DNA from: Pseudomonadota bacterium
GTDB taxonomy: Bacteria; Pseudomonadota; Alphaproteobacteria; Rhodospirillales; Magnetospirillaceae
NCBI GenBank assembly: GCA_021782815.1
Contig: JAJXUO010000005.1
Location: forward strand, 1-64,000
Length of the DNA: 64,000 nucleotides
Direction of reading: 5' to 3'
The notes below the pieces were generated by a model. That model was not told the DNA's origin, searched no databases, and worked only from the letters and a program-made list of their open reading frames with translations. How positions within the stretch are numbered: the first letter of the stretch is position 1; each line of letters starts with the position of its first letter. Shown here in pieces: positions 17,048 to 46,843 of the stretch. A program made the translations under genes and the position numbers.

Positions 17048-17092
17048 AAAATCCCGCTGTTCCCGGCGGCGCGGACAGGCTACAAAAGTTCA

Positions 17093-17264
17093 TTCGTCCG
17101 GTGCCGTAGGCCGCGCAAGCCTTCGGAGAATCGGGAATGCGGTGAAACGCCGCGACGTGCCCAACGCTGTGAGGGGGACCGGCCGACAGCATGCCACTGG
17201 CCATTACAGGCCGGGAAGGCGTCGCGCCGGGAGGAACCCAAGTCAGAAGACCGGCCGGACGAAG
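17093..17264 (+). ncRNA. Cobalamin (adenosylcobalamin) riboswitch upstream of bluB
   Basis: The leader shows the recognisable B12 aptamer landmarks in order: a closing stem TTCGTCCGG / CCGGACGAA, GGAATGCGGTGAAACGCCG, ACGTGCCC, ACGCTGTGA, CCGACAGCATGCCACTGG, GGGAAGGCG and CCCAAGTCAGAAGACC. It ends about 55 nt before the bluB start. In the known family, cobalamin binding represses the downstream gene. Genes for dimethylbenzimidazole synthesis are common targets, so structure and context agree. Confidence 0.93.
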
Positions 17265-17318
17265 ATGGCCCCACCGGCATGGACAGCCGGAAGGGGCGGC
17301 CTCCATCTCAGGGGAACG

Positions 17319-43816: not shown

Positions 43817-43844
43817 TTGACGTGGCGCCCATCAGGCCTATCAT
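43817..43844 (+). promoter_or_regulatory. Sigma-70 type promoter of the fluoride riboswitch transcript
   Basis: TTGACG (43817-43822), 16-bp spacer, TATCAT (43839-43844). The predicted start (about 43850-43852) falls just at the first base of the aptamer, which strongly supports the pair. Confidence 0.65.
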
Positions 43845-43852
43845 GGCGGGAA

Positions 43853-43902
43853 GGGAATGGAGTCTCCCTTAAACCGCCGCAAGGCTGATGACTCCTACCG
43901 CG
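43853..43902 (+). ncRNA. Fluoride riboswitch (crcB motif)
   Basis: The aptamer reads GGGAATGGAGTCTCCCTT, then AAACCGCCGCAAGG, then CTGATGACTCCTACCGC. P1 GGGA / TCCC, a long-range helix GGAGTC / GACTCC, and P3 GCC-GCAA-GGC can all form, and the invariant GCTGATGxCTCCTAC 3' segment is present. These match known crcB aptamers. A second hairpin with arms ACCGCG / CGCGGT follows and may be the expression platform. The next gene starts 128 nt downstream. No crcB or ClC-type exporter is in the window. Confidence 0.9.
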
Positions 43903-44029
43903 TGGATGAAATCGTCCGCGGTGGGATGTCGTGTCGACCCGCCGCCGTCAGGAAGAGAGCGGGTCCTCGTCAGACGCTCCCCCTCCCTCCCCTTCATCAC
44001 CGCCTCAACACCGCAAGGAGTCGCGTCCG

Positions 44030-44722
44030 ATGACGTATACCCATGAAGTCGAACAGATGTGCCGGGTCGCCCGGGGCCCCAATCACGGTCCCGCCCCCAT
44101 TCCGCAAGAGGGGCGCTGGACCAAGGCGCGGGAGGTTTCCGACATTTGCGGCCTGACCCACGGCGTGGGCTGGTGCGCCCCGCAGCAGGGGGCCTGCAAA
44201 CTGACCCTGAACGTCAAGAACGGCATTATCGAGGAGGCGCTGGTGGAAACCATCGGCTGCACCGGCATGACCCATTCGGCGGCCATGGCCGCCGAGATCC
44301 TGCCGGGCAAGACCATCCTTGAGGCCCTGAACACCGATCTGGTGTGCGATGCCATCAACGTCGCCATGCGCGAGATCTTCCTGCAGATCGCCTATGGCCG
44401 CACCCAGACCGCTTTTTCCGAGGGCGGCCTGCCCATCGGCGCCGGACTGGAGGATCTGGGCAAGGGCCTGCGCAGCGTCACCGGCACCATGTACGGCACC
44501 AGCGCCAGGGGGCCGCGCTATCTGGAGATGGCCGAGGGGTATGTGACCAAACTGGCGCTGGACGCCGACGACGAGATCATCGGCTACGCGTTCGTGCAGC
44601 TCGGGGTGATGATGGACCATATCGCCAAGGGCATGGAGCCGAGCGCCGCCCTGGCCAAGGCTTCCGGCAGTTACGGCCGTTTCGCCGAGGCCGTCAAGAT
44701 CATCAACCCGCGCCAGGCATAG
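44030..44722 (+). CDS. NifU/IscU-like iron-sulfur scaffold protein
   Basis: 230 residues, start with AAGGAG upstream. The NifU-N-like portion has Cys-containing motifs GVGWCAPQQGACKLTL, ETIGCTGMTHSAAMAAEIL (aligning with the scaffold's central Cys) and NTDLVCDAIN. The rest (FSEGGLPIGAGLEDLGKGLRSVTGTMYGTSARGPRYLEMAEGY) is conserved in the scaffold subfamily that travels with GGGtGRT genes. Actual cluster binding is inference. It is under the fluoride riboswitch and 12 nt from the next gene. Confidence 0.82.
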   Translation: MTYTHEVEQMCRVARGPNHGPAPIPQEGRWTKAREVSDICGLTHGVGWCAPQQGACKLTLNVKNGIIEEALVETIGCTGMTHSAAMAAEILPGKTILEALNTDLVCDAINVAMREIFLQIAYGRTQTAFSEGGLPIGAGLEDLGKGLRSVTGTMYGTSARGPRYLEMAEGYVTKLALDADDEIIGYAFVQLGVMMDHIAKGMEPSAALAKASGSYGRFAEAVKIINPRQA

Positions 44723-44734
44723 GGAGAGCCCGCC

Positions 44735-45733
44735 ATGATCACCTTCGAAGGATATGAGCGCCGCATCGCCCGGATTTCCGCCTTCCTGGCCGCGTATGGC
44801 CTGGCCTCGCTGGAGGCGGCCGAACAATGCTGCCGGGACAAGGGCGTGGATGTGCGCCAGATCGTGAAATCCATTCAGCCCATCGCGTTCGAAAATGCCG
44901 GCTGGGCCTATCTCATCGGCGCGGCGGCGGCCATCCGCCAGGGCCAGAACGCGGCCGCCGAGATCGCCGAAACCCTGGGCCGGGGCCTGCAGGCCTTCTG
45001 CATCCCCGGTTCGGTGGCCGACGACCGCAAGGTGGGGCTGGGGCACGGCAATCTGGCCTCGCGGCTGCTGCGCGAGGAAACCGGCTGCTTCGCCTTCTGC
45101 GCCGGGCACGAAAGCTTCGCGGCGGCGGAAGGGGCCATCGGCCTGGCCCGTTCGGCCAACGCCGCCCGCCGAACGCCGCTGCGGGTGATCCTGAACGGCC
45201 TGGGCAAGGACGCCGCCCAGATCATTTCCCGCGTCAACGGCTTCACCCATGTGGAAACGGTGTTCGATTACGCCGATGGTCGCCTGGAGGTCACCCGCAG
45301 CAAGGCCTATTCCAGCGGCGAGCGGGCCATGGTGCGCTGCTACGGCGCCGACGACGTGCGGGAAGGCGTCGCCATCATGCATCTGGAAAATGTCGATGTG
45401 GCCATCACCGGCAACTCCACCAATCCCACCCGGTTCCAGCATCCGGTGATGGGCGTTTACAAGAAGGAACGGCTGGACCAGGGCAAGCCGTTCTTCTCGG
45501 TGGCCTCGGGCGGCGGCACCGGACGCACCCTGCATCCCGACAATATGGGCGCCGGCCCGGCTTCCTACGGCATGACCGACACCATGGGCCGCATGCATTC
45601 CGACGCCCAGTTCGCCGGATCGTCCTCGGTACCGGCCCATGTGGAAATGATGGGGCTGATCGGCATGGGCAACAATCCCATGGTGGGAGCCTCGGTGGCG
45701 GTGGCCGTGGCGGTGCAGCAGGCCATGACCTGA
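44735..45733 (+). CDS. GGGtGRT protein family member
   Basis: 332 residues including the motif SGGGTGRTLHPDNMGAGPASYGMTDTMGRMHSD that names the family. No signal peptide. ITFEGYERRIARISAFLAAYGL opens it, with a GHGNLASRLLREETGCFAFCAGHES segment in the middle. Function is unknown; members are usually paired with a NifU-like gene, as here. It shares a transcript with the scaffold protein under a fluoride riboswitch, which suggests a role in fluoride stress or in protecting a fluoride-sensitive metal pathway. Confidence 0.88.
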   Translation: MITFEGYERRIARISAFLAAYGLASLEAAEQCCRDKGVDVRQIVKSIQPIAFENAGWAYLIGAAAAIRQGQNAAAEIAETLGRGLQAFCIPGSVADDRKVGLGHGNLASRLLREETGCFAFCAGHESFAAAEGAIGLARSANAARRTPLRVILNGLGKDAAQIISRVNGFTHVETVFDYADGRLEVTRSKAYSSGERAMVRCYGADDVREGVAIMHLENVDVAITGNSTNPTRFQHPVMGVYKKERLDQGKPFFSVASGGGTGRTLHPDNMGAGPASYGMTDTMGRMHSDAQFAGSSSVPAHVEMMGLIGMGNNPMVGASVAVAVAVQQAMT

Positions 45734-45810: not shown

Positions 45811-46665
45811 TTATTCGCAACAGGCAAAGGCTCTCAACGCCTCGACGTCTTCTATATAGATGCAGCGGCTATGCGTTCGTACGCCGTGTCCTCTCAGCGC
45901 GACGAACGCCCGTGACAGGGTTTCCGGCATCATCCCCAGACGGGCCGCCAGTACGCTCTTATCGAAGGCCAGACGGCAATCCCGGTGACGGCCGCCATCG
46001 GGAAACAAATCGGTCAGGAACACCGCCAGCCGTTGCGGCGCCGACAACCAGTAGGCATTTTCCAAGTCCTGGATCTGCCGTTCCAAACGCCGGCTCAGAT
46101 GCTCGGTGGTGCGCCGGGCCACCGAGCCGTACCGGGTGAGCGCCTCGAGAAAGCCCTCGGACGGCAATTCCAGCACACGGGAATCCCACACCGCTTCGAC
46201 TCCGGCGGCATAGGGCTGGGCCAAAAACAAATCCAGTTCCCCCAGACAGGCCCCGGCCTCGACGATGCGGTTCACCGTTATCACGCCGTTACGTCGGTTG
46301 CGGTATTCTTTCAGGCATCCCTCCAGCACCAGAAAGAGCGTGCGGGCGGCGTCGCCCTGATGGAACAGGCTGTCACCCCGGTAGAGAACCCGAACCCAGC
46401 CCTGATTGACCAGGGACAGCAGGGCGCCCTCCTCCATGCCGGCCAACAGGGTCGACTGCCGGATCACGCTCAGATCCGTCACCGTGAGAACGCCACGCTG
46501 CGATTTCAGCCGGGAATCTCGGCGATAATGGAATTCCCGCTGGCACATCCCCCGATCGACCTCCGATACGCGAATACAGACGCGGGGAATATTCGTTTTT
46601 CGGCAACCGTTACAACTCCGGTCTTCCGCGGAGGATGGAACAGTCATGAACAGCTTTTCCGGCAC
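45811..46665 (-). CDS. Crp/Fnr-family regulator with N-terminal cysteine cluster
   Basis: 284 residues if the GTG at 46665 is used; GGAGGAGGG lies directly upstream, whereas the ATG 10 codons earlier has none. N-terminal cysteines read SCNGCRKTNIPRVCIRV (C-x2-C-x8-C), not the C-x2-C-x5-C of Fnr. A cyclic-nucleotide-like domain (FHQGDAARTLFLVLEGCLKEYRN) and a C-terminal HTH (KSVLAARLGMMPETLSRAFVALRGHGV) follow. Downstream of tatA on the same strand, it could belong to the nos transcript. The effector is unknown. Confidence 0.82.
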   Translation of the reverse strand: MPEKLFMTVPSSAEDRSCNGCRKTNIPRVCIRVSEVDRGMCQREFHYRRDSRLKSQRGVLTVTDLSVIRQSTLLAGMEEGALLSLVNQGWVRVLYRGDSLFHQGDAARTLFLVLEGCLKEYRNRRNGVITVNRIVEAGACLGELDLFLAQPYAAGVEAVWDSRVLELPSEGFLEALTRYGSVARRTTEHLSRRLERQIQDLENAYWLSAPQRLAVFLTDLFPDGGRHRDCRLAFDKSVLAARLGMMPETLSRAFVALRGHGVRTHSRCIYIEDVEALRAFACCE

Positions 46666-46843
46666 GCGGCCCTCCTCCGAGCCACACGGTTTCATGAACC
46701 GCGATGATTCGGATCATCCCTAAAGTCTAAATCACCTTCCATCATGCTGCAGAGAGATGGACTCAAGCCTTGAGGCCGATCCCCGAACCGATTCAGGCCC
46801 GAGGCACCCGGCTCTAAACGAAATCCATATCTTTTAAGGTAGG

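What the first reader, a model, noticed from the sequence alone, without database searches (positions are those of the whole stretch)
43817..45733. Fluoride riboswitch controlling a NifU-like/GGGtGRT gene pair
A crcB-type aptamer with its own promoter directly at its 5' end precedes a NifU-like scaffold and a GGGtGRT protein, not a fluoride exporter. This indicates that the uncharacterised GGGtGRT pair is fluoride-induced and may protect or rebuild a fluoride-sensitive metal or Fe-S centre. I cannot say whether this association has been reported. The function is inference; the riboswitch, promoter and gene order are visible.
Basis: partly seen in the sequence, partly recalled or inferred. Interest (0 to 1): 0.8.

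Follow-up and report, generated by a model that had tools for sequence, protein, structure and literature searches.

The report
Fluoride-switched candidate iron-sulfur enolase
A fluoride-sensing RNA switch sits in front of two genes of unknown function whose genomic company suggests that they make a second, unrelated, iron-sulfur version of the glycolysis enzyme enolase, the enzyme that fluoride classically poisons; this is predicted from sequence and not yet tested at the bench.

Summary
In detail: RF01734 scores 55.9 bits (cut-off 34) at 43844-43904, behind a good promoter and before a NifU-like and a GGGtGRT gene. Of 148 pair-bearing genomes scanned, 39 hold a fluoride switch and 13 of these have one within 4 kb upstream of the pair (0.04 expected). 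On the GGGtGRT tree the link was gained or lost at least four times. In 5 of the 13 the pair shares the operon with CrcB exporters.

Function: (1) Two genomes read gap-pgk-tpi-gpmI-YezG-like-NifU-like-GGGtGRT, so the pair stands where enolase usually follows gpmI. (2) Enolase directly precedes the pair in 3 of 80 loci. (3) In fluoride cassettes enolase (2 switches) and pair (13) take comparable slots, never both. (4) Canonical enolase is missing from 6 of 16 pair-bearing but 0 of 26 pair-lacking genomes of one phylum (p=0.0015). Against: an order of Bacteroidota shows no difference (3/26, 2/26), and 87 of 108 tested bearers keep enolase. (5) Three cysteines are invariant, and the pair falls in iron deficiency in B. 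thetaiotaomicron.

Best explanation (0.65): a fluoride-tolerant Fe-S enolase, induced when fluoride blocks the Mg enzyme. It could explain published "missing enolase" cases. Untested biochemically.

The parts
43817..43844 (+). sigma-70-type promoter TTGACG-N16-TATCAT; expected start of transcription about 43851, at the 5' end of the aptamer (inferred)
   Evidence: 10/12 match, 1 found vs 0.1 in shuffles; conserved in congener G014
43844..43904 (+). fluoride riboswitch aptamer (crcB motif, RF01734)
   Evidence: 55.9 bits, E 8.7e-13
43890..43930 (+). hairpin that uses the aptamer's 3' pseudoknot strand (competing structure); no U run here, so termination would have to be Rho-dependent or control translational (inferred)
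   Evidence: fold; sequence conserved in G014; in L063, G456, G941 and G880 the equivalent hairpin is followed by a T run
44015..44020 (+). Shine-Dalgarno-like AAGGAG, before ATG at 44030
   Evidence: sequence
44030..44722 (+). NifU-like protein, 230 aa; predicted Fe-S-binding subunit (Cys 49, 77, 106 invariant in 141 of 141 aligned rows)
44735..45733 (+). GGGtGRT protein (PF14057), 332 aa; predicted catalytic partner

Best explanation
A fluoride ON-switch drives a two-gene operon. When fluoride enters the cell it binds the nascent leader, stabilises the pseudoknotted aptamer, and keeps the aptamer's 3' strand out of the competing hairpin, so the operon is expressed (switch class shown by covariance model; mechanism in this leader inferred). 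The two proteins are predicted to form one Fe-S enzyme. The NifU-like subunit would hold a [4Fe-4S]-type cluster through three invariant cysteines. The GGGtGRT subunit would supply the many invariant Arg/Lys/His/Asp/Glu residues of a phosphate- and carboxylate-binding active site. The predicted reaction is 2-phosphoglycerate to phosphoenolpyruvate plus water, the enolase reaction, by Lewis-acid Fe-S hydro-lyase chemistry. It would therefore be insensitive to the fluoride complex that blocks ordinary Mg enolase. In most bearers it would be a second enolase used when iron is plentiful and oxygen absent; in some the ordinary enolase is absent; in the fluoride-switched lineages, including this one, it would be induced to keep glycolysis and gluconeogenesis running under fluoride. 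Shown: switch, gene pair, conservation, recurrent fluoride linkage, place in a glycolytic operon of one clade, excess of enolase absence in one phylum. Inferred: Fe-S cluster, complex formation, catalysis, fluoride tolerance.
For: (a) Fluoride linkage: 13 of 39 genomes holding both pair and switch have a switch within 4 kb upstream on the same strand (chance expectation 0.039, which ignores relatedness). The label needs 8 gains or losses on the GGGtGRT tree, at least 4 forced by supported branches (quick method). A hairpin with T run overlapping the aptamer's 3' strand lies directly before the NifU-like gene in L063, G456, G941 and G880. (b) Same operon as CrcB/DUF190 in L078, L085, G941, G880, G844; antiporters next door, behind their own switch, in L010, L063, G632, G641. 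(c) Glycolytic slot: gap-pgk-tpi-gpmI-YezG-like-NifU-like-GGGtGRT in G1030 and G1035, gaps 3-117 nt, with one extra 211-aa ORF between pgk and tpi in G1030; gpmI before the pair in 6 of 80 loci; in 4 of 6 enolase loci looked at, gpmI directly precedes eno. (d) Enolase directly upstream on the same strand in L040, L060, L054, downstream in L034. (e) Slot exchange: of 68 switches, 13 lead to the pair, 2 to enolase, none to both in the up to 5.5 kb read; G520 reads CrcB-DUF190-enolase where L078/L085 of the same phylum read CrcB-DUF190-pair. (f) Enolase TIGR01060 absent in 6 of 16 pair-positive vs 0 of 26 pair-negative genomes sampled from the phylum of G081 (Sporomusa), p=0.0015; overall 20 of 108 positives vs 2 of 52 negatives, p=0.013. 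(g) Iron: the B. thetaiotaomicron pair falls 11- to 12.8-fold under iron deficiency (PMC10434189 passage). (h) Cys 49/77/106 in 141 of 141 rows.
Against: 87 of 108 tested pair-bearing genomes have a full-scoring canonical enolase (one more a weak match, 20 none), this genome included, so the pair is not simply complementary to it. In the order of G085 (Bacteroidota) there is no difference (3 of 26 vs 2 of 26). 26 of the 39 genomes with both do not have the switch near the pair, and only 4 of the 80 named pair loci carry a switch in the flank held. The glycolytic-operon loci belong to one clade of gut Clostridia, and G1030 keeps an intact enolase about 4 kb downstream. In the stretches read around the pair of eight enolase-less genomes no gpmI homologue was found. 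Completeness of most genomes was not told, so some absences may be assembly gaps. No homology to enolase or any solved enzyme. Presence of gpmI and pyruvate kinase in enolase-less genomes could not be searched (cap reached), nor presence of the pair in the enolase-negative isolates of the literature. The Hungate1000 authors report no substantial complementing gain of function in enolase-negative Butyrivibrio (PMC6118326 passage), which fits only if both kinds carry the pair. Fluoride tolerance is pure inference.
Confidence: 0.65

Rival explanations
1. The pair is another Fe-S enzyme close to the 2-PG/PEP node (for example making pyruvate from a phosphoglycerate, or a repair step) and is up-regulated because fluoride disturbs that node; it is not an enolase.
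For: Same context evidence: glycolytic operon, enolase neighbours, fluoride control. Most tested bearers keep a canonical enolase.
Against: The pair follows gpmI where eno often follows, takes eno's place in fluoride cassettes, and in enolase-less genomes something must still make PEP.
Confidence: 0.17
2. One reading: the NifU-like protein is a scaffold and the pair protects or rebuilds a fluoride-damaged metal or Fe-S centre.
For: IscU/NifU-like region; fluoride control; sufS/sufU genes upstream of the pair, beyond a transposase gene, in one Collinsella replicon.
Against: Among neighbour clusters shared by three or more of 80 loci I recognised gpmI, enolase, CrcB and DUF190 but, by eye from the first residues, no Fe-S assembly or repair gene (not every cluster was identified). 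The pair goes down in iron deficiency. The NifU-like protein scores below the scaffold families' cut-offs.
Confidence: 0.12
3. The pair is itself fluoride-sensitive and is simply over-produced under fluoride, as some bacteria do with ordinary enolase.
For: Precedent: enolase under fluoride switches, described as making more of the inhibited enzyme (PMC11139923 passages).
Against: Does not by itself explain why a second, unrelated gene pair stands where enolase stands in related cassettes.
Confidence: 0.04
4. Hitch-hiking: the switch lies before the pair by chance or through transfer of one cassette.
For: Most pair loci lack the switch; the tree counts gains or losses together, so one old gain with losses or transfer is not fully excluded.
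Against: 13 genomes against 0.04 expected, at least 4 changes forced on the tree, different gene orders in the lineages.
Confidence: 0.02

Closest known systems
Fluoride riboswitch (crcB motif, RF01734) operons
   Same: Aptamer, ON-switch logic, company of CrcB, DUF190, Na+/H+ antiporters; enolase under the switch is described (PMC11139923 passages)
   Different: Output here is the NifU-like/GGGtGRT pair. The passages read name exporters, antiporters, pyrophosphatase, haloacid dehalogenases, enolase, formate hydrogen lyase, chorismate mutase (PMC11139923) and mutS, K+/Cl- transport, formate hydrogen lyase (PMC2864571); they do not name the pair. The 2012 gene list itself is not held
Enolase (phosphopyruvate hydratase, TIGR01060/PF00113/PF03952)
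   Same: Predicted reaction, place after gpmI, comparable slot in fluoride cassettes
   Different: No sequence similarity found, two genes, predicted Fe-S instead of Mg
IscU/NifU/SufU Fe-S scaffolds (PF01592)
   Same: Residues about 43-113 resemble IscU/NifU; Cys 77 aligns with a conserved scaffold cysteine
   Different: Below the family cut-offs; over 100 further residues; adjacent to GGGtGRT in 79 of 80 loci (loci were fetched through GGGtGRT, so the converse was not tested)
[4Fe-4S] hydro-lyases (aconitase, class I fumarase, L-serine dehydratase type)
   Same: Three Cys ligands leaving one iron free for the substrate (recalled chemistry, analogy only)
   Different: No homology found

Membership tests
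Fluoride riboswitch RF01734 | covariance-model score above gathering cut-off | tested here: met
   55.9 vs 34 bits
Fluoride riboswitch RF01734 | fluoride-dependent control of the downstream gene | not testable with these tools
   needs in-line probing or reporter; overlapping terminator-like hairpin seen in four relatives only
GGGtGRT family PF14057 | full-length Pfam match | tested here: met
   602.8 bits over 1-327 of 327
NifU/IscU scaffold (PF01592, TIGR01999, TIGR03419) | score above curated cut-off | tested here: not met
   20.6 vs 22; 21.1 vs 192.4; 25.6 vs 187.9 bits
NifU/IscU scaffold (PF01592, TIGR01999, TIGR03419) | three conserved cysteines | tested here: inconclusive
   three invariant Cys (49, 77, 106), but only Cys 77 aligns clearly with a scaffold cysteine
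Enolase superfamily | Enolase_N/Enolase_C domains | tested here: not met
   no match of either protein at E up to 1; none of GGGtGRT at E up to 10
Enolase activity (function, not family) | 2-PG to PEP | not testable with these tools
   context and presence/absence only
Enolase activity (function, not family) | stands in the eno place of a lower-glycolysis operon | tested here: met
   G1030 and G1035; one clade only, and G1030 keeps eno nearby
Enolase activity (function, not family) | canonical enolase missing more often where the pair is present | tested here: inconclusive
   6/16 vs 0/26 in the phylum of G081 (p=0.0015), 3/26 vs 2/26 in the order of G085

The most novel reading that the evidence does not exclude
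NifU-like/GGGtGRT is a second, non-homologous enolase: an oxygen-sensitive, iron-dependent, fluoride-tolerant Fe-S hydro-lyase spread across anaerobes of many phyla. It would supply PEP in the rumen and gut bacteria reported to lack enolase, and is placed under fluoride riboswitches as the bypass of the classic fluoride target.
Probability: 0.62. Interest if true: 0.97.

Novelty: new variant of a known kind. Interest (0 to 1): 0.9.

Why it matters
[quoted passage not shown] a methylglyoxal shunt has been proposed there) and Endomicrobia (PMC11257099, where that shunt is absent and the gap is called perplexing). A named two-gene candidate makes the question directly testable. It would also assign a function to a very highly conserved family that is highly expressed in vivo in gut bacteria (PMC11204068) and seen in rumen metaproteomes (PMC7035244, PMC12643325), explain why fluoride regulates it, and offer a fluoride-tolerant enolase for work on organofluorine-degrading strains.

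Tried and rejected
Shine-Dalgarno sequestration: in the window the aptamer strand GACUCCU is complementary to AGGAGUC over the SD, but this is not kept in G014, so I do not rely on it. Frameshifted enolase genes in G1032, G1035, G1038, G1040: each has one or two lesions in an otherwise well-kept gene, possibly assembly errors; not used as evidence. Sub-threshold switches before pairs lacking one: none at E up to 1 in the eight loci given. Homologues of GGGtGRT in the PDB: none (best E 1.4, chance). BT0173/BT0174 in the literature: two papers listed, only the iron paper relevant. The C. pasteurianum proteome paper (PMC5395762, passage) lists both proteins among iron-affected ones, but I did not establish the direction. 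Wide stretches around the pair of eight enolase-less genomes showed no gpmI or enolase.

Papers: of each paper cited only the passages found by term were read. Of the 9 papers holding 'GGGtGRT' I opened 6 and left PMC12101220, PMC12014591 and PMC13041051 unread. One of the six (PMC9942572) reports GGGtGRT flagged by a virulence-factor predictor, which I do not follow. Baker et al. 2012, the original fluoride-riboswitch gene list, is not held, so I cannot exclude that its supplement lists the pair. Searches for prior report: 'fluoride riboswitch' with NifU (0); with 'iron-sulfur' (2 listed, not opened); 'fluoride','riboswitch','nifu' (3 listed, judged unrelated from titles); alternative/missing/iron-sulfur enolase terms (7 held, 5 listed, 2 opened); novel/noncanonical enolase terms (31 held, 20 listed, one opened earlier). 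Nothing seen proposes GGGtGRT as an enolase.

Full report
OBSERVATION. The fluoride aptamer is real: RF01734, 55.9 bits against a cut-off of 34, window 43844-43904. A 10-of-12 sigma-70-type promoter ends exactly at its start, and promoter, aptamer and the following hairpin are nearly unchanged in a congener while the flanks differ. Then come a NifU-like gene (44030-44722) and a GGGtGRT gene (44735-45733, PF14057, 602.8 bits). The same genome has a second switch before CrcB-DUF190 and one ordinary enolase elsewhere.

THE PAIR. In 80 named loci fetched by the GGGtGRT protein, the NifU-like gene lies directly upstream in 79; the other locus is cut at a contig end. Outside the genus both proteins keep about 60-87% identity to the window's, across phyla. 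The NifU-like family has exactly three strictly invariant cysteines (49, 77, 106 in 141 of 141 rows; Cys 56 in 139), whereas GGGtGRT has none (best 142 of 145) but many invariant Arg, His, Lys, Asp and Glu (second loci of the same genomes and truncated genes were left out of these rows). A profile of the NifU-like family finds IscU/NifU structures (best E 7.4e-5, residues about 43-113); GGGtGRT finds nothing in the PDB. The pair is patchy: 4 of 55 genomes of the window's family and 9 of 337 of its class, and 3 of 28, 26 of 149, 18 of 155 and 16 of 249 in groups centred on known bearers.

FLUORIDE LINKAGE. I scanned 148 pair-bearing genomes for RF01734 (1, 40, 67, 40; one search used stricter filters). 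39 hold 68 switches over the cut-off; 7 others have only matches below it. In 13 genomes a switch lies on the same strand within 4 kb upstream of the pair: G000 and G014 (window genus), G058, G632, G641, G642 (class of a record named Deltaproteobacteria), G081 and G456 (order of Sporomusa), G941, G880, G844 (phylum of Sporomusa), G085 and G089 (records named Bacteroidota and Bacteroidetes). In the other 26 it does not. Uniform placement predicts 0.039 such genomes (this ignores relatedness). Within the 80 named loci, 4 carry a switch in the flank held. On a 145-row GGGtGRT tree the label needs 8 gains or losses, at least 4 of them forced by well-supported branches, and it is clustered (0 of 500 shuffles as low, quick method, some long branches). 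Different gene orders in each lineage suggest repeated gain (inference). The switch is absent in close relatives L007 and G001, without even a weak aptamer in what is held. Four relatives show the classic expression platform: the aptamer's 3' strand re-pairs into a hairpin followed by T's, immediately before the NifU-like gene. In the window the equivalent hairpin lacks a U run, so the final step there is unclear.

COMPANY. All 68 switches were read up to 5.5 kb downstream, less where the contig or my stretch ended, against ten reference proteins: dynamin-like GTPase 23, CrcB 22, DUF190 16, the pair 13, antiporters 11 and 8 (two references), Usp 6, enolase 2; neighbouring switches can count the same gene. 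The pair shares the operon with CrcB and DUF190 in G941, G880, G844, L078 and L085. Enolase and the pair occupy comparable slots and were never seen together downstream of one switch: G520 reads CrcB-DUF190-enolase (its pair is on another contig), L078 and L085 read CrcB-DUF190-pair; G452 reads enolase-dynamin-antiporter-Usp, L063 reads pair-(second switch)-antiporter-Usp-DUF190.

GLYCOLYSIS. Among neighbours in the 80 loci (flanks up to 3 kb), 2,3-BPG-independent phosphoglycerate mutase lies upstream of the pair in 6 (one clade of gut Clostridia), enolase directly upstream in 3 (two Akkermansiaceae, one Clostridium) and downstream in 1. Wider stretches of two of the six (G1030, G1035) show gap-pgk-tpi-gpmI-YezG-like-NifU-like-GGGtGRT on one strand, with one extra 211-aa ORF after pgk in G1030. 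A third stretch (G1032) has no glycolytic gene directly before the pair. In 4 of 6 enolase loci examined gpmI directly precedes eno, so in G1030 and G1035 the pair stands in the usual enolase place. G1030 still has an intact enolase about 4 kb downstream; in G1035 it is frameshifted. In stretches around the pair of eight enolase-less genomes neither gpmI nor enolase was found.

PRESENCE AND ABSENCE. Canonical enolase (TIGR01060) was sought in 108 of the 148 pair-bearing genomes and in 52 pair-lacking ones (12 of the 52 were not listed by name as negatives but follow from the handle numbers). It is absent from 20 of 108 and 2 of 52 (p=0.013); one more bearer (G064) has only a weak match. The 80 genomes were hand-picked from the bearers, so the fair comparison is within samples drawn the same way: phylum of G081 6 of 16 vs 0 of 26 (p=0.0015), order of G085 3 of 26 vs 2 of 26 (no difference). 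One enolase-less bearer, G199, is 95% complete in about 20 contigs; completeness of most others was not told. All 14 control genomes have enolase.

LITERATURE (passages only). Enolase loss is a published puzzle: Oscillibacter valericigenes (PMC3558957), Butyrivibrio and Prevotella (PMC6118326; PMC6912079), Pseudobutyrivibrio (PMC7523725), Endomicrobia (PMC11257099). GGGtGRT protein of Pseudobutyrivibrio ruminis and Eubacterium ruminantium appears in rumen metaproteomes (PMC7035244; PMC12643325). In the chicken caecum GGGtGRT is highly expressed by Bacteroides and others, while phosphoglycerate mutase and enolase are low or absent in Bacteroidetes (PMC11204068; the low mutase weakens this as support). 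The B. thetaiotaomicron pair drops 11- to 12.8-fold in iron deficiency (PMC10434189). Fluoride inhibits enolase with a Ki near 80 uM, and enolase is often found in fluoride-switched operons (PMC11139923).

CONCLUSION. A fluoride switch most likely controls a candidate Fe-S enolase. The regulatory link is firm at the level of sequence; the enzyme function is an inference from several kinds of context, with the counter-evidence that most tested bearers keep ordinary enolase and that one of two fair comparisons shows no anticorrelation. I rate it 0.65.

Noticed in passing
68 fluoride-switch loci, e.g. L010 577-2241, L190 4217-5917, L192 1774-3519: A dynamin-like GTPase (PF00350 in the two scanned) is the commonest of the reference genes downstream of the fluoride switches examined (23 of 68), level with CrcB (22); the passages of the papers shown to me do not mention it.
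   Followed up: partly
L184 6721-14161 (G456): A complex I/formate-hydrogenlyase-like membrane operon lies downstream of two fluoride switches in a Sporomusa relative.
   Followed up: no
L183 5749-6462 (G844): A TauE/SafE-family exporter gene lies between a fluoride switch and the NifU-like gene.
   Followed up: no
L187 4294-5865 (G642): A MutS-domain gene follows a fluoride switch downstream of the pair; mutS is named in the original crcB-motif report (PMC2864571 passage).
   Followed up: no
L257 7977-8843, L258 9937-10584: A YezG-like (immunity-protein family) gene stands between gpmI and the NifU-like gene in a clade of gut Clostridia.
   Followed up: no
L221 1080-5516 (G880): In an enolase-less genome, pgk is followed by two genes with phage-integrase domains where further glycolytic genes might be expected.
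   Followed up: no
L205 615-5999: On a Collinsella aerofaciens replicon the pair lies near sufD, sufS and sufU genes, with a transposase gene between.
   Followed up: no
window 17082-17273: Cobalamin riboswitch, 113.3 bits.
   Followed up: no
window 45811-46695 (-): A Crp/Fnr-family regulator gene is convergent with the GGGtGRT gene.
   Followed up: no
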